Shown here in pieces: positions 2,132 through 10,925 of a DNA stretch of 64,000 nt. This DNA comes from Gimesia benthica. Lineage in GTDB: Bacteria; Planctomycetota; Planctomycetia; Planctomycetales; Planctomycetaceae. Positions within the stretch are counted from its first letter, which is position 1. Each line of letters starts with the position of its first letter. Below the pieces are notes generated by a model that did no database searches, had not been told where the DNA came from, and worked only from the letters and a program-made list of their open reading frames with translations. The stretch covers positions 2,884,501 through 2,948,500 of the forward strand of contig NZ_CP043930.1 of assembly GCF_009720525.1 (NCBI RefSeq), written 5' to 3'. Made by a program: the position numbers and the translations under genes.

Positions 2132-2560
2132 ATGGATTGGTTCACCTTTCTGATATTACTGCTGACTGCTTCGCTGACGGCGCTGGCTGTCTGGTGGGCC
2201 ATTCAGAAATGGTTTCGCGTCGAGTCCGAATCAATCGTCGAAGACTCAGCATCGATTGCCGGCAGTTATGAAGCACCTCAGCACGCGCTGTACTGGAACT
2301 TTACGACCGTATTGATTGCCGTCTGTATTCTGCTGCTGGTACTGGGAATCAGTGTGCAGACAACCTCACTGCGGGATCCGATCACCTGGACTCTGGGAGC
2401 GGCCCTGCTTCTGAGCTGGGGAATGGCACTCTGGTCGGGCATGCTGACCGCACCGAAAAAGCCGCAGACCGCTCCGGTGCCCTCTGATCCTGAATTGACG
2501 ATCTATGCGGAACAGGAATCAGCGTCCGCCGATGATCCGAATCCGACGGAGGCCACCTGA
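2132..2560 (+). CDS. divergent complex I subunit NuoA-like membrane protein
   Basis: A 142-residue protein with three predicted membrane segments (about 4-24, 56-78 and 85-104). By position it heads a cluster in the order NuoA-H-J-K-L-M. A short segment SYEAPQHALYWNFTTVL (about 47-63) aligns with the NuoA loop YECG...F.vrFYL: the tyrosine and glutamate are kept, but the cysteine of the quinone-site loop is replaced. NuoA normally helps build the junction between the quinone chamber and the membrane arm. Identity is too weak to call on sequence alone and leans on gene order. The stop codon overlaps the next start (TGATG), so translation is probably coupled. Confidence 0.5.
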   Translation: MDWFTFLILLLTASLTALAVWWAIQKWFRVESESIVEDSASIAGSYEAPQHALYWNFTTVLIAVCILLLVLGISVQTTSLRDPITWTLGAALLLSWGMALWSGMLTAPKKPQTAPVPSDPELTIYAEQESASADDPNPTEAT

Positions 2561-3606
2561 TGCTGTGGCAGATTCCCCTGTTCCTGGTTAGCACGCTCGT
2601 GTTTCTGTTTATCTCGCTGCTGCTGGCAGAGGCAGCCTGGTCTCCCCTGAATGCCTCTGTCAAAACGCGACTGCAACTCGCAGTGAAGCGGGTTGCCCGT
2701 TCCCAGGCAGAGATCACTCAACGGAGCGAACGCTGTCTGCTGCTGTTCTCACTGACCTGCGGTCTGCTGACCATTGCTTTTCTCCCCGGTTATATCACCA
2801 ACATGTGGTCCATACGGATTGAACCGGTCGAAGCGACCGGGCTCGTGACGTGCCGCTATGCACCGATGATGTATCTGGGATTGTTCTTGCTGCTACAGGC
2901 CGCGGGGCATATCAGTCTGGCGGTAACCGAGCGACAGAGGCACCCGCTGTCGGGACTGCTACTCAACGGCTATTTCTGGCTCCCGCTGCTGCTGTCTTTC
3001 GCCTCGGTGGCAGCCTATCTCCCCGTGCATGCGGAACTGGAACAGACTACAAGCGGCGCGACATCCACTGTCTGGTTGCTGCTGATACAACCGGTGGGAA
3101 TGCTGGCGTTGTTCCTGTCCCTGACCGGCCCTGTGATTCTCGTCAATGCCCAGGTACCCAAACCTGTCCGGCCGGTGCAGCACTGGATTCGCGAACTGCA
3201 TCTCATCAACACCGTCTTCGTGATGTCTATCATCATCCTCAGCCTGACCTGCTTCGGCCCGCGCGAGGAGATGAGCGTGCTACAGATTATCATGCGATTT
3301 GGTTTGTTTCCCGCCCTGCCCTTGGTGCTGGTGGGAGTCCATTATCGACTGATCCGTTTTCTGAAACGACGTCCCGTCTATGATCCGGAAGCGATCTGGA
3401 AGCTGTTGCTCTGGCTGTCGCTGGTTGCGGTTTCCGCTTCGTTTCTGGCGTTTCATGTGCTGGGTATGTCAGACCATTACATGCATCTGCTGCTCAACTT
3501 CAGTCTGCTGGCGATCTGGTGGGGCTTTGTGCTGCCCCGGTTTCCGTTCCCCTCTTCCACGAACGCACATGCGGAAGTGCAGACTGCAGGGGAGGTTCAG
3601 CCATGA
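2560..3606 (+). CDS. divergent NuoH-like (complex I subunit 1) membrane protein
   Basis: A 348-residue polytopic protein with about eight hydrophobic segments, the size and topology of NuoH. The hallmark NuoH sequences are absent: there is no recognisable ISYE segment, no AE-x-x-R-PFDL loop and few of the acidic residues that line the quinone-to-antiporter path. I call it NuoH-like because it lies between a NuoA-like gene and clear NuoJ/K/L/M-like genes and has the right length. It may instead be an unrelated anchor subunit that took the NuoH position. It overlaps the following gene by four bases (ATGA at 3603-3606). Confidence 0.4.
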   Translation: MLWQIPLFLVSTLVFLFISLLLAEAAWSPLNASVKTRLQLAVKRVARSQAEITQRSERCLLLFSLTCGLLTIAFLPGYITNMWSIRIEPVEATGLVTCRYAPMMYLGLFLLLQAAGHISLAVTERQRHPLSGLLLNGYFWLPLLLSFASVAAYLPVHAELEQTTSGATSTVWLLLIQPVGMLALFLSLTGPVILVNAQVPKPVRPVQHWIRELHLINTVFVMSIIILSLTCFGPREEMSVLQIIMRFGLFPALPLVLVGVHYRLIRFLKRRPVYDPEAIWKLLLWLSLVAVSASFLAFHVLGMSDHYMHLLLNFSLLAIWWGFVLPRFPFPSSTNAHAEVQTAGEVQP

Positions 3607-4409
3607 TTGACGAACTGTTATTCTACCTGCCCGGTACCGCGGATAACCTGCTGTTTTTAACACTGGCGGTACTAATTCTACTGATGCTGACCGGCGTGTA
3701 TGGTTATCTGAATTTAACAACGCATCAGGCACCAGAGACAGCGCCCCGCTGGGGCTGGCCGTTGCTCTCGATCGGGGCACTGCTGATCCTGCTCTACTGG
3801 TTCGGCTCTCCCTTCTCTTTTAAAACCGAGGGCAAGGCGGAGTCGCTGCTGGCGTTATTCAGTCCGATTCCCGTGGGTACGCTGGTCATCGTCAGTGGTG
3901 CTGCAGCGGTACTCGCTTCGCGAATGAGATGGGCCCTGGCAGCTGCGTCGGTTTCTCTGCTCTCCAGCGGTCTACTCTTCCTTCAGGCTCACATGCCTCC
4001 GCTGATGATTCTCAGCTGGCTGACTCTGGGAGGCCTGATCGTGTTGCTCTGCTATCACAACTGCACTGACGAGGAATCACCCGAATCAGTCTCGGCAGAG
4101 CAGGACGAAGAGGGCGCGTTCCGCGAACCGCTGCTTGCCTGCCTGGCGTGTGGATTTCTGTTATGTGTCTGTCTGTGGGTGGTCCAGCGGGACTGGGGGC
4201 CGGGAGCCGAAGTGACACCCGTACCGAAATCAGAATGGGCCGGGCTCTCCTTACCGGAACTGCTGCCCCGGTTCTTCAGTCAACACTGGCCGACGTTGCT
4301 GCTTCTGCTCTGCTTCGTACTACTGGTCTTTGTAGGCATGACCTGGCTGGTCTTTTCCCCGCGGGAGTCCCGCGTTTCACAGACAGAGGAACCGGGAGGG
4401 AACGCATGA
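3603..4409 (+). CDS. divergent NuoJ-like (complex I subunit 6) membrane protein
   Basis: A 268-residue membrane protein, longer than the usual 165-200 residues of NuoJ because of two extra N-terminal helices. The core matches the NuoJ pattern: two short helices followed by LMILSWLTLGGLIVLLCYHN, which aligns with the conserved NuoJ third helix (VYxGAImVLFLFV). A late helix near residues 228-255 corresponds to the last NuoJ helix. The tyrosine and glycines of the helix with the pi-bulge are largely replaced. The start at 3603 overlaps the previous stop by four bases, and the stop overlaps the next start at 4406 by four bases, giving a coupled operon. Confidence 0.55.
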   Translation: MIDELLFYLPGTADNLLFLTLAVLILLMLTGVYGYLNLTTHQAPETAPRWGWPLLSIGALLILLYWFGSPFSFKTEGKAESLLALFSPIPVGTLVIVSGAAAVLASRMRWALAAASVSLLSSGLLFLQAHMPPLMILSWLTLGGLIVLLCYHNCTDEESPESVSAEQDEEGAFREPLLACLACGFLLCVCLWVVQRDWGPGAEVTPVPKSEWAGLSLPELLPRFFSQHWPTLLLLLCFVLLVFVGMTWLVFSPRESRVSQTEEPGGNA

Positions 4410-4750
4410 TCCTGTTGCAGGCCACCGCCGTCCTCCACCAGAATTTGATGATCGGGATCATCCTGATCGCAGTCGGCTACCTGGGAATGCTGCTGCAGCG
4501 GCATCGCCTGGCGACCGTCTTTTCGCTGCTGATCTGGCTGCAGGGAGCGGGCCTCATGCTGGCGGCCTTTGCAGAGTATCAGGGTTCGCGGGCACAAACG
4601 GTGTTTTTTCTGTTCGTCCTGTTTCTGGTGATGCTGCCGGCCGCTGCGCTGGCGGTACTCAGCCTGCGCCGTAAATCACCTGATGCTGAAACCGATGCCC
4701 CTGCGGAAACGAAGTCCCCCGTGGAAAGGGGGGCCGGGTCTGGTGGATAG
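4406..4750 (+). CDS. divergent NuoK-like (complex I subunit 4L) membrane protein
   Basis: A 114-residue, three-helix protein. The segment IGIILIAVGYLGMLLQRHRL aligns well with the NuoK opening (FxiGxxGvLxRRN). The second helix (LIWLQGAGLMLAAF) and third helix (FLVMLPAAALAVLSLRR) follow the NuoK layout. In canonical NuoK, each of these two helices carries a conserved glutamate in the central proton-transfer axis. Here the aligned positions are leucine and proline, so both are missing. The charged tail after residue 90 is longer than usual. It is translationally coupled to the NuoJ-like gene before it and overlaps the likely GTG start of the NuoL-like gene. Confidence 0.65.
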   Translation: MILLQATAVLHQNLMIGIILIAVGYLGMLLQRHRLATVFSLLIWLQGAGLMLAAFAEYQGSRAQTVFFLFVLFLVMLPAAALAVLSLRRKSPDAETDAPAETKSPVERGAGSGG

Positions 4751-6623
4751 AACAATCACCCTGTTACTGCAACTCGGACTGGTCGTGCCCTTCGTCACGG
4801 TGCTGATGTCGGCCCTGGTCGCCTGTCGCATTCTCAAAGGGAATCCGCGCTGGCCCGCACTACTGGGAGTCTCAGTCACGACACTGGTCTCGGTGGTCGC
4901 GGCTGGTTACTTCAGTCCCCTGCTGGGAGAACAGTCTTATTCGTTCCCCCTGGTTCGCTGGCTGACGCTTCCCGGCGAAACCTCTCTGCCTCTGGAAATC
5001 GGTGTACTCTACGACTCACTGAGCCTGACATTCTATGCGCTGGTCTCGGCAGGCATGCTCTGCGTGCTGCTGTTGAGTCCGCCCGATTCAGCTGAGTCTG
5101 CAGATACCGTTGCGCCGCGCTACGGGGGTTTGCTGTTACTGATGGGTTTCTGCGCCACGACTGGCATCATCCTGGCAACGAACTTTCTGCAACTCTTTTT
5201 CTGCTGGTGCCTGCTCTCGATGAGTTTGAACCTGCTGCATGAAGTGCACCTGCGGACGACGCTCGCTCCGGAAACGGCACGCCGACACTGGTGGGGCTGG
5301 AATGCGCTGGGGGATGGGATGCTGCTGCTGGGACTGTTTCTCGTTCAGACCAATTTCACCAGTCTGGACTTTCTTACGATGCTGCAGCCGGCGGCGTTGA
5401 CCCAGGTTGCGGAAACCAATCGCACTGCCCTGCCCGGCATCAGCGTGCTACTCTTCTTTGCCGCCCTGCCTCGTCTGAGCCTGTTTCCTGCTTCGGCTCT
5501 GCTGGTGAGTCGGGAAGAGAACTGGTCGGCACGTTCGCTGGCCGGGATCAATCTGCTGGCGATGACCGCGGGACTGTTCCTGTTGCTCCGCTGCGCGCCT
5601 CTGATTCAGGCAGTTCCTGCGACCCGCACGCTGATGGTGCAACTCGGAACGCTCTCAGCTCTGCTGACTCTGTTTTCCGCTTTGAGCCTGCCTCGCGATG
5701 CGCACCCGGATCGCTGTCTGAGCTGGTTGACGGCGACGCTCGCGGGACTAGCGGTCGCGTCGGTGGGACTGGGCCAGGTGGGAACGCTGTCCGGCACACT
5801 GGCACTGGTGGTTCTCGAACTTCTGGTCCTGGTGATCCTGATTTTACTGGCAGCCTGGCGAGAGCAGAATGGGATTCCGACCGCAGCGCTGGCGTCTGTT
5901 AAGCTCTGCCTGATGCTGTTGATTCTGCTGGCGGTCTGTGGACTAACAGGACTGCTGCCCGCGCTGATCCTGTCCCGCGCCGCGACCGACGATTTACGCG
6001 TCAGCTTCTTTATCTGGTTGACCGTACCTGTAGCAGCAGGATATGTCGCAGGCCTGATGCGATTTTATTTTTCGCTGGCGGATTCAAACTCATCATCGAA
6101 AACTGGTAAATCCTTCCCGGTGCTCCCTCTGTGGAGTGCGACACTGGGGGTGAGTCTGCTGGGAAGCCCGTTACTGATTCCCTTCCCCTTTGTGCCATCT
6201 CTCTGGCCGGGACCTCTGCTGGAAATGCTGCCTCCGCTGTTCGAACATGACTGGCTGATGTGCAGCCTGTTCGGTCTGGCTCTGCTGGTGGCGATGATCC
6301 TCACCTGGATGACCGCGGGACGTTCCCATTCTGTCGCGACTACGGAACCGCCGGCTCTGCTGCAGTTAGGACGATCGCATTATTACCTGATGTCGCTGCT
6401 GGACCGTGTGTTGATTCAGCCACTCGAGTTGCTGGCCCGCACGGTGTCCCTGACTGAGGAGTGGCTCGTCTCCCGTCTGAGTCGGTTCTCGCTGGAGCGA
6501 CTGCCGCGGGCCTGGGGCGATCTGCTGCTGCACATGCAGAACGGCCAGGTCACCTTTCCGACATTGATTCTGGTGATGACCCTGTCCGTGTTAATTCTGG
6601 TGTTGATGGTGTTACAGATTTAG
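4743..6623 (+). CDS. divergent NuoL-like antiporter-type subunit
   Basis: A 626-residue polytopic protein of the complex I/Mrp antiporter family. Visible anchors are DSLSLTFYALVS in the N-terminal helices, NFLQLFFCWCLLSMSLNLL aligning with the NuoL helix NllqLFvGWELVGLCSYLL, NALGDGMLLLG aligning with NRVGDfGFlLG, and a C-terminal MQNGQV ahead of the last helix, which is specific to NuoL. Key changes: the TM5 glutamate is cysteine, the TM7 lysine is arginine (LPRLSLF), and the TM12 lysine aligns with arginine (LSRA). The GTG at 4743, preceded by a purine-rich AAAGGGGGG stretch, is preferred to the ATG at 4683 because it avoids a 20-residue charged extension and fits the coupled operon. Confidence 0.7.
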   Translation: MDRTITLLLQLGLVVPFVTVLMSALVACRILKGNPRWPALLGVSVTTLVSVVAAGYFSPLLGEQSYSFPLVRWLTLPGETSLPLEIGVLYDSLSLTFYALVSAGMLCVLLLSPPDSAESADTVAPRYGGLLLLMGFCATTGIILATNFLQLFFCWCLLSMSLNLLHEVHLRTTLAPETARRHWWGWNALGDGMLLLGLFLVQTNFTSLDFLTMLQPAALTQVAETNRTALPGISVLLFFAALPRLSLFPASALLVSREENWSARSLAGINLLAMTAGLFLLLRCAPLIQAVPATRTLMVQLGTLSALLTLFSALSLPRDAHPDRCLSWLTATLAGLAVASVGLGQVGTLSGTLALVVLELLVLVILILLAAWREQNGIPTAALASVKLCLMLLILLAVCGLTGLLPALILSRAATDDLRVSFFIWLTVPVAAGYVAGLMRFYFSLADSNSSSKTGKSFPVLPLWSATLGVSLLGSPLLIPFPFVPSLWPGPLLEMLPPLFEHDWLMCSLFGLALLVAMILTWMTAGRSHSVATTEPPALLQLGRSHYYLMSLLDRVLIQPLELLARTVSLTEEWLVSRLSRFSLERLPRAWGDLLLHMQNGQVTFPTLILVMTLSVLILVLMVLQI

Positions 6624-6689
6624 CGAGATCCGATTCCCCGGTTACGATTATGCCAGGATTGATTTGATTTTTTTGATTGAGCCCCGTTC

Positions 6690-8300
6690 ATGGACCTGTT
6701 TCTGAATTCCCTGATTTCGTTTTCGCCTGTACTGCTGGTAATGATGCCAGTCGCCGGGGCCTGCTTTGGCCTGGGCAGCGTGAAACTGGGTCTGGAATTC
6801 CATCGCTGGACCGCGTTCTCGAATACGCTCGTCTCCTGTCTGATCCTGGCACTGGTCCTCTTCGCTCCGGAACTGCAGGGAACCGGGGCGACCCGCATTA
6901 TCTCGATTACGCTCAAGCTGCCGGTACTGAGTACGGCTGGTCCCGACGCCGCCACACCCCGGAATTTTCAATGGGGCCTCGATGCGCTGTCTGCCTGGTT
7001 TCTGCTGTTGATTACCTGCCTCTGGCCGCTGTTAGTCTTCTTTTCGAATCGGCTGACGAGGGTCTCCCATCGGCATTACTTTCTGCTACTGATTCTGCAG
7101 TCACTGCTGGCGGGGCTGTTGATCTCGCATGATGTGATCAGTTTTGTGACATTCCTGTTTCTGTCAACGGTCTGCACCATCGGTCTGCTCCAGGTCTGGA
7201 ACGGTTCGCGGGCTCGTTCGGTGCTGGAAAGTACCTTATACCTGCAACTGCTGGGGGACACTTTGATTCTGGCGGGCCTGCTGCTGGCGGCGACGTCGTT
7301 TTCCTGGATGCAGGGCGTGCTGCTCGAGGCGCCGCAGGCACTCACGTTTCAGTTTGATGCCTTGTTCCGGGAGAGCAGGAGCGACGTCCGGCTCTACCCA
7401 CTGGCTGAGGCTTACTGGAGCACCAGTGCCCCGTGGATCCTGTTGCTGTTATTGGCCGGCTTTGCCTGCAAGGGTTTTCTGTTCCCCGCCTATTATGGCA
7501 TGACCCAGTGGCTGAAACAGCAGACGGCACAGACCGCATCCCCCTCGGTGATGACGGGCTGGTCGCTGATTCTATTATTGATCCTTACCAAGCTGAGCGT
7601 CTACGGCATGCTGCGTTGCCTGGTACCGTTGCAGCAGAGTGTGAGTGAGAGCCTGTATTCCCTGCTGGCCTTCTGGGGAATCATTGGTTTTCTGATCACG
7701 GCGTTACTGGCGTGTGCCCGTCGGGAGCTGCTACAGACTGTCGTCTGGTTCCTGGTGGGACAGGCGGCCTTAACGCTGACGATTCTCTCTGCCTCTCAAG
7801 AAGTCGTTGCTTACTTTGCTGTGTTAAATGTGGTACAGGGGCTGGCTGCGGGAGTGTTGCTGCTGGTCATTCCCTGCCTGTCACTGATACAAGGACATCA
7901 CTCAGAACGAGTGATGCACTGGCTGGGCTGGCTGTCGTTATTGACGCTGATCGGAGCTCCCGGCCTGGGTGGTTTCACCGCCTGTTTTGCGTTCCTGTGG
8001 AGTCTGACCAGCCAGCAGATGCTGCTGGCACTGGGCTATCTGCTGGGAACATTGCTGTTCAACCTGGCGCTGATTCGCGGAGGCTGGCAGCTGTTGACCG
8101 TTTCACATTCCGCTCCCGACAAAGCCGACAAAGAAACAGCACCCGCTGAGAAACGGGCGCTGGTCTGGCTGGCGCTGGCTCCAGCCGTGCTCTTGATTGT
8201 CAGCCTGGGGATCACGCCGGTTTATCTGCTGGAGCGGACTCTGTTCCCCCTGGTCAGCTATGAGGCCGCCCCGTCTACCGAGGCGGCCGTTGAAGAGTGA
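6690..8300 (+). CDS. divergent NuoM-like antiporter-type subunit
   Basis: A 536-residue polytopic protein, close to the usual NuoM length. GLDALSAWFLLLIT matches the N-terminal NuoM segment. FACKGFLFP aligns with FAiKvPLFP and keeps the TM7 lysine, and LTKLSVYGMLR aligns with LLKmGtYGllR and keeps the TM8 lysine. Two acidic positions are lost: in the helix DVISFVTFLFLSTVC the TM5 glutamate aligns with phenylalanine, and in PGLGGFTACF the TM12 glutamate aligns with cysteine. It lies 66 bases after the NuoL-like gene and ends the cluster; no NuoN-like gene follows. Its stop codon abuts the stop codon of the convergent hydrolase gene. Confidence 0.75.
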   Translation: MDLFLNSLISFSPVLLVMMPVAGACFGLGSVKLGLEFHRWTAFSNTLVSCLILALVLFAPELQGTGATRIISITLKLPVLSTAGPDAATPRNFQWGLDALSAWFLLLITCLWPLLVFFSNRLTRVSHRHYFLLLILQSLLAGLLISHDVISFVTFLFLSTVCTIGLLQVWNGSRARSVLESTLYLQLLGDTLILAGLLLAATSFSWMQGVLLEAPQALTFQFDALFRESRSDVRLYPLAEAYWSTSAPWILLLLLAGFACKGFLFPAYYGMTQWLKQQTAQTASPSVMTGWSLILLLILTKLSVYGMLRCLVPLQQSVSESLYSLLAFWGIIGFLITALLACARRELLQTVVWFLVGQAALTLTILSASQEVVAYFAVLNVVQGLAAGVLLLVIPCLSLIQGHHSERVMHWLGWLSLLTLIGAPGLGGFTACFAFLWSLTSQQMLLALGYLLGTLLFNLALIRGGWQLLTVSHSAPDKADKETAPAEKRALVWLALAPAVLLIVSLGITPVYLLERTLFPLVSYEAAPSTEAAVEE

Positions 8301-10925
8301 TCAGTTATCGGCGGCTTCGTAGAGCACGCCTTCCGGATGACCGGCTTCGGGCAGGAACTCGAAATGCGAACCGGAGGCGAGTGTGAAGACATGCAGTTGC
8401 CCATCGACTTTGCGTCGATAGGTGAGTGGCATCGCCGCATCAAAGGCATGCGACTCGCCGGGCTTGAGCTTGTACGGTCCGCCCCAGTCACTGTAGGGAC
8501 TTTTCAGTTCGTATTCGATGTCCTGTTTTGTGCCGTTGGTGATCTTCAATTCGGGTACGGAGAAGGTCGCCAGCAGCTGAGGTGCAGACCACTGGATCTG
8601 CTGAATACGATAACGGCCGAAGCCGAGCTCGATGTCGGGGATCTCTGCGACCGAAGCGGGGCCCTGTTTCGTCCAGCCATCCCAGGCCGCCTGGACCAGG
8701 GAACGCAGTTTTTCCTGGTCGATGTTCTTCTCCTGCGGTTTGTAATCCGGGGCGAAGCGGGCGAGACCACCAATGCGTGAATCCCCTTCCCAGTCCAGGC
8801 GAATGGCCCGTTTCGAGAAGCTCTGGTCGACGATCTCGGGATCGACATCCTGACTCAGTGAAAGTGAGAACTCGGCGTAAGGCGTCCACTGTTTCTCGGA
8901 GGCCGATTTTTTGATCGCCATCGAAATCGCCGCCCGGGGAACGACGAAGCGAAAAGGATCGTCGCTGGCGGACTTGGGTTTGTTGCTGTCTTCTACCTGA
9001 ATCGGTCGCGTGAGTACCAGTTCAGACCAGATCTGCAGTCCGTCGCTGTACTGTTTCAGATCGGGGAAGACCTGCTGCAATGTTTTGCGATCTGCCAGTG
9101 GATCGAACGAGTGACCAGGAATATCCAGAACGGGAATCCGCGCGACATCGTCTTTAACCAGCATCTCGGTCAGCGGTTTGAGAATCCCGGGTGCCACGCC
9201 GACCTGCAGATCGGTGACCTTGGGAATCTCATCCACGGGAGTTCCGAAGGCGTTGACCTGTTGAACGGTGGCCGGTGGATTGGTCGGATCAAGGGCTGCG
9301 ACGGTCAGACCGAAATTGAGTGAGACCCCCTGTTTATCGGTGACCACCTCGCGGGGCCAGAGTTTAATCCGCGGCTGATAGACGGGGAGTGGCCAGACGG
9401 CATCGACGACCTGGCTGGCTTCGCTGAAGCTGAGCTGCTTTTCGAGTTCTTCCACCAGACCGGGGACGATCGCTTTGACTTCATCTTCAATACGGCCCTT
9501 GCTCCCGTAAATACCGTCAATCAGTCCGCTGGAGACCTTTTCAGAAGTCATGCCGATTCCGCGGGTCGAAACGCCCGCCGGCCCGGAGACGTACCAGTTG
9601 TCCTGGGGAATCGTGAACCGCGTGCGGATCAGTTTGAGCTTGAGCTGATCCCCCTGAATAAAGGGCCGCACATCGAAACTGAGCCAGACCGGTCTTTGAT
9701 GACCGATGCTGACCGAGATCGGACCGGCGACCGCGGAATGTCGATTGCCGGTAACGTAGGTGTTGCTTATATAGAGGTTCACATCCTTGATCCCCAGTTG
9801 AATGTTCAAGGTGCCGGCAGCGTAGGCTTCCACGGCGGCGCGTTCCAGTGCTCCCTTATAGGAAATCCCGGAGAACTGCACGCTGAAGCTGCGTCCCTGG
9901 GCGGTGGTCCAGTCCTGAATGTCGGCGATGCGTCCTTCGAGCATATCCGCGGGAACCATGCTGGGAACCGCATCGGCGAGGGACTGCAGAAAACGATTGC
10001 CCAGTCGCACCGAGACAGCGTCGTTGATCATCAGTGCCGGTACGAAGGGAGTTTCACTGTCGACGGCAGCCGGTTGTTTACGATCCGGCTTGACCAGCAA
10101 GGGTGCCGCGGGATCAATCAGTTGAGTGGGATTCTGCATCCAGTCGAACAAAGGTTGAGAGTAGGCGACTTTCCAGACATCATGACCGGCCTCGGGAACG
10201 AGGGTGAAGCGCGGTTCGCCGCCTGCTTTCTTGACTGCATCGATCATCCGCTGTGATTCTTCCGGCAGGACTACCCGATCTTTGGCACCATGAAACGCCC
10301 AGACGGGCACGTCTTTGAGTTGCGCCGCCGATTCGGTTTTACCGCCGCCGGAGAGAGGTACTACGGCCGACCAGCGATTGGGAAAAGCGGCCGCCATGCT
10401 CCACGCGCCGTAGCCTCCCATAGACCAGCCGGTCAGGATCTGTTGATTCGAATTGGTTGAGTATTTCTGCAGCACCTGGTTGAGGATCTGCAGGGCCCGT
10501 TTGCCGTCGGAGGAGTCGGCCAGCCAGCCTTCGAGCAGACGTTCTTTCATATTCTCTGCCTGCGGGAAGACGGCGATGAAAGGAAATGTTTTTTCCTGCT
10601 GTTTGATGATCGGTCCCAAGCCGACCTGAGTCTGTTTGAGTCCGTCGTTACCCCGTTCGCCGGCACCGTGGAGAAAGAGGATGACCGGATATTTCTTCGC
10701 AGGGTTATAATCGAGGGGCACGAAGACAACGTAGCGATGTTCGCCGGCGTCATCCTTATAGACGGCATTCACAAAACCGGTTTTCACCGGAGCCGTTTGT
10801 GTGGACTCGGGTGTTTTGGATTTGGTTTGAGCCTGTAAAGCGTGGCCTGTCGTCAGGAGGCTGACGCAGCAGACCAGAAAAGCGGTGCGGAACGCAAACA
10901 GGAAGCGAGTTCGGAGAGTTTGCAT
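8301..10925 (-). CDS. secreted alpha/beta hydrolase with large C-terminal extension
   Basis: An 874-residue protein with a signal peptide (residues 1-32, ending HALQAQ). Residues 50-265 form an alpha/beta hydrolase of the esterase/prolyl-oligopeptidase-like type: FLHGAGERG at 84-92 is the oxyanion loop, GWSMGG at 166-171 holds nucleophile Ser168, and the likely acid and base are Asp216 (HGAKD) and His248 (AGHD). This resembles LpqC/PHB-depolymerase-like and phospholipase-type esterases. The remaining 600 residues match nothing I recognise. They are rich in predicted beta strands, contain paired sections on ligand- or surface-like folds, and end without a membrane anchor. The substrate is unknown. 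Export to the periplasm or outside is inferred from the signal peptide. Confidence 0.75.
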   Translation of the reverse strand: MQTLRTRFLFAFRTAFLVCCVSLLTTGHALQAQTKSKTPESTQTAPVKTGFVNAVYKDDAGEHRYVVFVPLDYNPAKKYPVILFLHGAGERGNDGLKQTQVGLGPIIKQQEKTFPFIAVFPQAENMKERLLEGWLADSSDGKRALQILNQVLQKYSTNSNQQILTGWSMGGYGAWSMAAAFPNRWSAVVPLSGGGKTESAAQLKDVPVWAFHGAKDRVVLPEESQRMIDAVKKAGGEPRFTLVPEAGHDVWKVAYSQPLFDWMQNPTQLIDPAAPLLVKPDRKQPAAVDSETPFVPALMINDAVSVRLGNRFLQSLADAVPSMVPADMLEGRIADIQDWTTAQGRSFSVQFSGISYKGALERAAVEAYAAGTLNIQLGIKDVNLYISNTYVTGNRHSAVAGPISVSIGHQRPVWLSFDVRPFIQGDQLKLKLIRTRFTIPQDNWYVSGPAGVSTRGIGMTSEKVSSGLIDGIYGSKGRIEDEVKAIVPGLVEELEKQLSFSEASQVVDAVWPLPVYQPRIKLWPREVVTDKQGVSLNFGLTVAALDPTNPPATVQQVNAFGTPVDEIPKVTDLQVGVAPGILKPLTEMLVKDDVARIPVLDIPGHSFDPLADRKTLQQVFPDLKQYSDGLQIWSELVLTRPIQVEDSNKPKSASDDPFRFVVPRAAISMAIKKSASEKQWTPYAEFSLSLSQDVDPEIVDQSFSKRAIRLDWEGDSRIGGLARFAPDYKPQEKNIDQEKLRSLVQAAWDGWTKQGPASVAEIPDIELGFGRYRIQQIQWSAPQLLATFSVPELKITNGTKQDIEYELKSPYSDWGGPYKLKPGESHAFDAAMPLTYRRKVDGQLHVFTLASGSHFEFLPEAGHPEGVLYEAADN

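What the first reader, a model, noticed from the sequence alone, without database searches (positions are those of the whole stretch)
2132..8300. Stripped, highly divergent complex I membrane arm (A-H-J-K-L-M-like genes) lacking hydrophilic subunits and key acidic residues
Seen: six coupled genes in the canonical order of complex I membrane subunits with no NuoB/C/D/E/F/G/I or NuoN. Seen by alignment to family motifs: TM5 glutamate is Cys in the L-like and Phe in the M-like protein, both NuoK glutamates are absent, NuoA keeps YE but loses the cysteine, and the M-like TM12 glutamate is Cys. Lysines in the L-like protein are Arg, while the M-like TM7 and TM8 lysines are kept. Family knowledge: these acidic residues carry protons in complex I and Mrp. 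Inference: this may be a distinct ion-handling or redox-linked membrane complex, or a decaying copy. Intact overlaps and full lengths argue against decay.
Basis: partly seen in the sequence, partly recalled or inferred. Interest (0 to 1): 0.8.

Follow-up and report, generated by a model that had tools for sequence, protein, structure and literature searches.

The report
Complex I's orphaned membrane arm
Bacteria of the genus Gimesia keep most of the membrane half of the respiratory enzyme complex I as intact genes although its quinone-reducing core subunit NuoD was not found in the genomes checked; this orphan arm is predicted not to pump protons in the usual way and likely does something else in the membrane, so it would show what that half can do without its electron-transfer half.

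Summary
Window 2132-8300 carries six intact, tightly packed genes: K, L, M and J match NuoK/L/M/J by profile; H has no sequence match but its predicted fold is NuoH; A is unproven. The order is intact in all 15 Gimesia contigs that span it, and M is in 17 of 17 Gimesia genomes. A NuoN cut short at its N-terminus sits elsewhere, also in 17 of 17. NuoD is in 0 of 15 Gimesia genomes but in 130 of 135 relatives; the 12 sister operons read run A-B-D-H-I-J-K-L-M-N. The window's genome has nqrA-F instead, though some relatives have both. The TM5 Glu of L and M, both NuoK Glu and TM12 Lys/Asp of L are gone genus-wide; M keeps both lysines in 16 of 16. dN/dS is 0.04-0.48, so this is not decay. Best reading: the arm of the family's own complex I, orphaned once Na+-NQR served NADH oxidation, predicted not to pump protons by the known route and likely a redox-independent ion pathway around M. 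Identity is well supported; function is inferred. NuoC/E/F/G/I were not searched genome-wide.

The parts
2132..2560 (+). A-like gene (142 aa small membrane protein); NuoA identity unproven
   Evidence: Position in front of H, as nuoA stands first in the sister operons that reach it; no profile match to NuoA (0.26 %); model poor (pLDDT 55.5); intact in the 15 Gimesia contigs that span the cluster, window included
2560..3606 (+). H-like gene (348 aa), NuoH fold by prediction, with one extra, highly conserved C-terminal helix
3603..4409 (+). J-like gene (268 aa), NuoJ relative
   Evidence: hhalign 71.8 %, E 3.5e-5 to sister NuoJ, next best 8.7 %; 5 BLAST pairs at E 1e-3 or better; shared REPLLSCL-type motif with L062 NuoJ
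4406..4750 (+). K-like gene (114 aa), NuoK relative without its two membrane glutamates
   Evidence: PF00420 1e-7; hhalign 97.4 %; Glu columns: Leu in 15 of 15, and Leu in 10 plus Pro in 5 of 15
4743..6623 (+). L-like gene (626 aa, GTG start), NuoL relative; C-terminal lateral-helix region retained
   Evidence: NDH_I_L 2.4e-23; hhalign 99.7 %, 595 columns; residues; C-terminus; tree
6690..8300 (+). M-like gene (536 aa), NuoM relative; TM7 and TM8 Lys kept, TM5 and TM12 Glu lost, TM6 Asp190 gained
   Evidence: NDH_I_M 3.1e-20; hhalign 99.7 %; profile hits to solved NuoM chains (8qby_M 1.7e-13); residues; lowest dN/dS of the set, 0.04-0.14

Best explanation
The genes at 2132-8300 encode a remodelled membrane arm of respiratory complex I (J, K, L, M, by predicted fold H, and likely A) that Gimesia genomes keep although NuoD was not found in those checked; it is predicted no longer to pump protons by the known Glu-Lys route and likely works as a redox-independent ion pathway centred on its M subunit. 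Shown here: homology of J, K, L, M and a separate N; conserved order and purifying selection; absence of NuoD; a complete nqrA-F operon in the window's genome; loss of the named residues. Predicted: the NuoH fold of H. Inferred: the ancestor of Gimesia had the family's ordinary complex I; Na+-NQR took over NADH oxidation; the NADH/quinone modules were lost and the arm was kept and diverged fast. Inferred: the proteins still assemble (L keeps its lateral-helix region, and all are co-conserved). Inferred: L has become mainly a strut (TM5 Glu and TM12 Lys/Asp gone), while M, with both central lysines, a new TM6 Asp and Gln in place of two His, plus N, with its TM5 Glu and an Arg for the TM7 Lys, keep a polar axis through which ions would move, driven by the membrane potential rather than by electrons.
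For: Genus-wide conservation: M 17 of 17, N 17 of 17, six-gene order intact in the 14 other contigs that span it plus the window. NuoD: 0 of 15 Gimesia, 130 of 135 other genomes of the sample; own genome: no NuoH-family or NuoD hit. Canonical operon order in the 12 sister loci read, as far as each stretch reaches. Homology; fold of H. L, M and N each have their best BLAST pair with the same sister genome (L062), and L sits inside the family's own NuoL clade (100/99; with L062 and L080 98/94). dN/dS, window strain against the four nearest genomes, both methods: M 0.04-0.14, J 0.10-0.17, L 0.15-0.23, H 0.17-0.30, K 0.045-0.20, N 0.08-0.30, A 0.28-0.48. NqrB-family hit over cut-off in 16 of 17 Gimesia; nqrA-F in own genome. 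Residues. Changing the conserved Glu of E. coli L or M to A or Q, or mutating the conserved Lys of L, M or N, abolishes function (PMC3046159, discussion section read).
Against: No functional, expression or assembly data exist here. Charged residues conserved in sisters are not lost markedly more than others (charged kept against hydrophobic kept: L 6 of 36 and 29 of 124; M 8 of 26 and 32 of 83; K 1 of 7 and 6 of 25; N 4 of 12 and 13 of 41; J 0 of 4 and 8 of 33), so the lost carboxylates may only reflect fast divergence. The canonical TM5 and TM12 acids of L and M are gone, which speaks against transport as much as for a new kind. Some relatives hold both NuoD and an NqrB-family gene (G007, G040, G042), so Na+-NQR does not by itself explain the loss. 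K and J have their best BLAST pairs with other sisters than L062. A is not shown to be NuoA. NuoC/E/F/G/I were not searched genome-wide; NuoB and the NuoH family only in the window's genome. H diverged beyond profile detection, so a peripheral subunit could have too.
Confidence: 0.5

Rival explanations
1. The same orphan arm, but it moves no ions: it serves as a membrane scaffold or anchor, for instance for another respiratory complex.
For: Loss of the TM5 Glu in L and M and of both Glu in K, and deletion of the TM12 Lys/Asp stretch in L; L lateral-helix region kept.
Against: M keeps both central lysines in 16 of 16 and gained an invariant Asp in TM6; N keeps its TM5 Glu in 17 of 17. A pure scaffold would not need them.
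Confidence: 0.3
2. The arm is still redox-driven, through a peripheral module that was replaced or has diverged beyond recognition; the quinone-reductase-like MDR protein encoded directly before the NuoN-like gene is one candidate.
For: The MDR gene precedes N in 17 of 17 loci and its best NCBIfam match is quinone_pig3 (7.7e-37, under the cut-off). H itself escaped all profile searches, so other subunits could too. H keeps invariant charged residues (R211, E212).
Against: No hydrophilic gene in the six-gene cluster; NuoD 0 of 15; working Fe-S subunits would be expected to keep recognisable cysteine motifs (inference; not searched).
Confidence: 0.13
3. A non-functional remnant drifting to loss.
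For: Long branch (3.2 changes per column to the Gimesia clade); N is shortened at its N-terminus; the A-like gene has dN/dS up to 0.48.
Against: All six genes are open and near full length in the 15 spanning contigs; dN/dS 0.04-0.30 for the rest; 17 of 17 genomes keep M and N.
Confidence: 0.05
4. Not complex I at all, but an Mrp-type antiporter or an energy-converting hydrogenase-type membrane module.
For: Redox-free and rich in antiporter-like subunits, as Mrp is.
Against: H takes the NuoH fold in its model, and NuoH is absent from Mrp (PMC7419157, passage read); M and L pick NuoM and NuoL and L falls among the family's own NuoL; gene order is that of nuo minus the hydrophilic genes. Mrp and hydrogenase subunits were not put into the tree.
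Confidence: 0.02

Closest known systems
Respiratory complex I (NDH-1), membrane arm NuoA-H-J-K-L-M-N, of other genera of the same family
   Same: Gene order; homology of J, K, L, M, N; predicted fold of H; L tree places it inside the family's own NuoL
   Different: No NuoD found; no NuoB in the cluster; key membrane Glu/Lys lost; N split off and shortened; A unrecognisable
Mrp (CPA3) cation/proton antiporter
   Same: A redox-free membrane complex of antiporter-like subunits plus a NuoK-like one
   Different: Has a NuoH-type and an additional NuoM-type subunit, which Mrp lacks, and lacks the TM5 Glu and, in L, the TM12 Lys described as essential there (PMC7419157, passages read)
DAB inorganic-carbon pump (DabA/DabB)
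   Same: An antiporter-like NuoL relative without an NADH module; the same genome holds such genes (DabA C-terminal part 4.6e-121 beside an antiporter-like gene)
   Different: No DabA-type partner in or beside this cluster; multi-subunit with NuoH, J, K
Loss of complex I with Na+-NQR retained, as in Stieleria SV_7m_r (PMC11588811, passages read) and apparently in genome G018 here
   Same: NADH oxidation apparently left to Na+-NQR
   Different: There the membrane subunits went too (in SV_7m_r only a nuoL annotation stayed); Gimesia kept and remodelled the arm

Membership tests
Complex I (NDH-1) | Membrane subunits NuoH, J, K, L, M (and N) | tested here: met
Complex I (NDH-1) | Subunit NuoA | tested here: inconclusive
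   No profile match, no BLAST match at E 1e-3 in 15 x 11 comparisons, poor model; only position and size fit
Complex I (NDH-1) | Quinone-module subunit NuoD | tested here: not met
   PF00346 0 of 15 Gimesia genomes, 130 of 135 others in the same call; a subunit diverged beyond the profile is not excluded
Complex I (NDH-1) | Quinone-module subunit NuoB | tested here: not met
   Window's genome alone: the one PF01058 hit lies directly before a NiFe hydrogenase large-subunit gene
Complex I (NDH-1) | NuoC, E, F, G, I somewhere in the genome | not tested
   None recognised among the ORFs read in and around the cluster; no genome-wide search made
Complex I (NDH-1) | TM5 Glu with TM7 Lys in L and M; two Glu in K | tested here: not met
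   L Glu 0 of 15, Lys replaced by Arg 15 of 15; M Glu 0 of 16, Lys 16 of 16; K both Glu 0 of 15
Complex I (NDH-1) | NADH:quinone oxidoreduction coupled to proton pumping | not testable with these tools
   Needs biochemistry
Mrp antiporter | No NuoH-type subunit; TM5 Glu in the antiporter-like subunits | tested here: not met
   NuoH-fold protein present by prediction; TM5 Glu absent in L and M
Mrp antiporter | MrpE, F, G subunits | not tested
   No further gene in the cluster, but no Mrp profile was searched
DAB | DabA beside the antiporter-like gene | tested here: not met
   Flanking genes are others (the downstream neighbour is hydrolase-like); the genome's DabA part lies at about 6.89 Mb

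The most novel reading that the evidence does not exclude
[quoted passage not shown] Two unnamed NuoL-like proteins (P0064, P0026) with the same TM5 Glu loss and TM7 Lys-to-Arg change suggest a wider group.
Probability: 0.3. Interest if true: 0.88.

Novelty: new variant of a known kind. Interest (0 to 1): 0.7.

Why it matters
How the complex I membrane arm moves protons, and which residues it truly needs, is still argued. A natural arm that seems to have shed the electron-transfer half and residues thought essential, yet is kept intact across a genus, is a natural experiment: what is left conserved shows what the arm can do without redox drive. It would also be a clear case of complex I being dismantled in modules, with NADH oxidation left to Na+-NQR while the membrane half was reused.

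Tried and rejected
Decay: rejected on open frames in 15 spanning contigs and dN/dS. A second, complete nuo operon elsewhere in the window's genome: rejected for NuoD and the NuoH family. Mrp or DAB identity: rejected (membership table). Relatives outside the genus: the 36 H-like proteins found are Gimesia where named, bar one 'Planctomycetota bacterium', and many have no name. P0026 and P0064 are the only further L proteins seen to group with Gimesia; I could not reach their contigs, and searches of 392 phylum and 170 family genomes gave only NuoL-like matches of 26-37 % to them, whose residues I did not check one by one. Long-branch attraction is possible in the tree, and it flags unlike letter make-up for many Gimesia rows and P0064. 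A-like fold: model too poor; Foldseek gave one meaningless hit. H by Foldseek alone: best E 0.26, unrelated chains first, complex I chains from rank 19; the NuoH match rests on VIA-align plus gene position. H, J and A against PDB sequences: no meaningful match. Conserved operon partner: the convergent downstream gene is beside the cluster in 15 of 16 loci, the 16th contig ending there, but it is on the other strand. A claim that charged residues were lost selectively: not supported by the counts. dN/dS with the distant L063 was also run: one method failed for the six cluster genes, the other gave 0.13-0.36 with saturated dS, and none for M.

Literature: eight answered searches. In their listings I saw no report of a complex I membrane arm kept without its peripheral arm; (nuoAHJKLMN) listed 10 papers, of which I opened none. 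Subscription journals are mostly not held. Papers seen in part: PMC3046159 (passages and the discussion section), PMC11588811, PMC7419157, PMC10945688 (passages).
Full report
What is there. The window lies in an 8.03 Mb genome of one contig (G000:C1:2884501-2948500). Its L-like protein is 72 % identical to a Gimesia panareensis protein and its H-like protein 93 % to a partial Gimesia chilikensis one, so it is a Gimesia. Six genes run in one direction at 2132-8300: A-like, H-like, J-like, K-like, L-like (GTG 4743) and M-like. The first five overlap by 1 to 8 bases, and M follows after 66 bases. The nearest recognised neighbours on both sides are on the other strand and look unrelated.

Who has it. 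M is in 17 of 17 Gimesia genomes. The six genes are open and in the same order in the window and in the 14 other contigs that span them; one further contig ends inside the cluster (L, M only), and one genome shows only a fragment of M. Among 60 other genomes of the family, one of them a Gimesia, only that one had a close L (47 %); 26 others matched at 24-33 % and 33 had no match at E 1e-5. Canonical NuoD is in 130 of 135 non-Gimesia genomes but in 0 of 15 Gimesia. Of the five other genomes without it, four are broken assemblies (75-93 % complete, 250-950 contigs) and G018 is a one-contig genome that seems to have lost complex I altogether: its NuoM-family hits are a few neighbouring antiporter-like stretches within 3 kb, which I read as the kind found beside DabA. 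In the window's genome the NuoH family and NuoD are absent, and the one NuoB-family hit sits directly before a NiFe hydrogenase large-subunit gene.

The missing NuoN. There is one, alone, at G000:C1:4165554-4166870, and in 17 of 17 Gimesia genomes, behind an MDR-type reductase gene in 17 of 17 (best family quinone_pig3, under cut-off). It is 381-392 aa in the other genomes and lacks the first helices of NuoN: the NDH_I_N match begins at profile position 168, and the alignment begins at about TM5. Many metazoan ND2 proteins have also lost N-terminal helices (PMC3046159, discussion read).

Residues. From (columns at least 90 % conserved in sisters). L: TM5 Glu 0 of 15 (Cys, Phe, Leu, Met, Ile), TM7 Lys replaced by Arg 15 of 15, TM6 Asp kept 15 of 15, TM12 Lys/Asp stretch lost (a gap in 15 of 15 at the Lys; one search shows it). 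M: TM5 Glu 0 of 16, TM7 and TM8 Lys 16 of 16, TM12 Glu lost (Gln, Cys, Leu, Gly, Phe), two His replaced by Gln in 16 of 16, and an invariant Asp190 in TM6 where the five sisters shown have Ser or Gly. K: both Glu 0 of 15. N: TM5 Glu 17 of 17; the TM7 Lys is Arg in the Gimesia rows shown, as it already is in some sisters. TM numbers follow family knowledge, not a structure of these proteins. In E. coli, changing the conserved Glu of L or M to A or Q, or mutating the conserved Lys of L, M or N, abolishes function, while E133A in N had modest effects (PMC3046159); what Arg does at that Lys was not in the passage. The canonical proton route is therefore unlikely to work here. Against over-reading: the charged conserved residues were not lost far more often than others, and the Gimesia L branch is very long (3.2 changes per column).

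Still under selection. Between the window's strain and its four nearest genomes dN/dS, taking both methods, is 0.04-0.14 for M, 0.10-0.17 for J, 0.15-0.23 for L, 0.17-0.30 for H, 0.045-0.20 for K, 0.08-0.30 for N and 0.28-0.48 for A; one comparison each of H and K failed under one method. The MDR gene beside N gives 0.04-0.13. The set is constrained, A least.

Origin. L groups inside the NuoL of its own family (100/99), with L062 and L080 (98/94), together with two unnamed proteins, P0026 and P0064 (100/98). Both have lost the TM5 Glu (Tyr, Gln) and carry Arg for the TM7 Lys (read by eye for P0064); P0064 still has a Lys in the His-Lys stretch that Gimesia lost, which looks like an intermediate, though long-branch attraction could also pull them together. 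L, M and N have their best BLAST pairs with L062, while K and J pair best with other sisters; so the separate N most likely came from the same operon, but this is inference.

Who oxidises NADH? A complete nqrA-F operon, each gene over a curated cut-off, followed by an apbE-like gene, lies at about 4.274-4.281 Mb in the window's genome, and an NqrB-family hit over the cut-off is present in 16 of 17 Gimesia; the 17th is a 74 % complete genome. Some relatives have both this family and NuoD (G007, G040, G042), so the take-over is inferred. Absence of complex I with Na+-NQR kept has been reported for a Stieleria strain (PMC11588811, passages read); there, only a nuoL annotation remained.

Reading. 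The identity (a complex I membrane arm of the family's own type, kept without NuoD) is well supported. Assembly and function are inferred. I favour a redox-independent ion pathway around M, because M is the most constrained subunit and keeps its central polar residues, while L looks like a strut. A pure scaffold is a serious rival. A hidden peripheral module cannot be excluded until NuoC, E, F, G and I are searched across the genus.

Noticed in passing
G000:C1:4165554-4166870 (L006:8551-9873, strand -): NuoN-like gene lacking its N-terminal helices, directly behind an MDR-type, quinone-reductase-like gene in 17 of 17 Gimesia genomes; in the window's genome its reading frame runs about 50 codons past the stop used by its nearest relatives.
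   Followed up: partly
window 3603-4409 (J-like, residues 180-188): Invariant C-x2-C-x4-C in a predicted membrane helix of the J-like protein in all 15 Gimesia sequences; could be a metal site or structural.
   Followed up: no
window 3454-3540 (H-like, residues 299-327): H-like C-terminal helix motif with invariant H299, S304, D305, H309, N313, at and beyond the part that aligns with NuoH.
   Followed up: no
P0064 and P0026 (unnamed proteins, contigs of 10609 and 6178 bases): NuoL-like proteins with TM5 Glu replaced (Gln, Tyr) and TM7 Lys replaced by Arg that group with Gimesia L; possibly further orphan arms in unsampled relatives.
   Followed up: partly
G007 (L061:8794-10044 and G007:C1:2840741-2842252): In this sister genome the NuoD gene (4.906 Mb) lies about 2 Mb from its best NuoM gene (2.841 Mb), so membrane and quinone modules can be split in the family; its NuoD is of a second, more distant type common in the sample.
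   Followed up: no
G000:C1:1445179 and 6886535-6890154 (L001, L002): Two further places with antiporter-like NuoL relatives; beside the second lies the C-terminal part of DabA, so inorganic-carbon uptake genes of the DAB kind seem present.
   Followed up: partly
L008:4857-15752 (G000:C1 about 6.831-6.842 Mb): [NiFe] hydrogenase cluster with small and large subunits and, by recall from their sequences, maturation genes.
   Followed up: no
window 8301-10925 (strand -): 874-aa hydrolase/esterase-like protein, convergent with and next to the cluster in 15 of 16 Gimesia loci, the 16th contig ending there.
   Followed up: no
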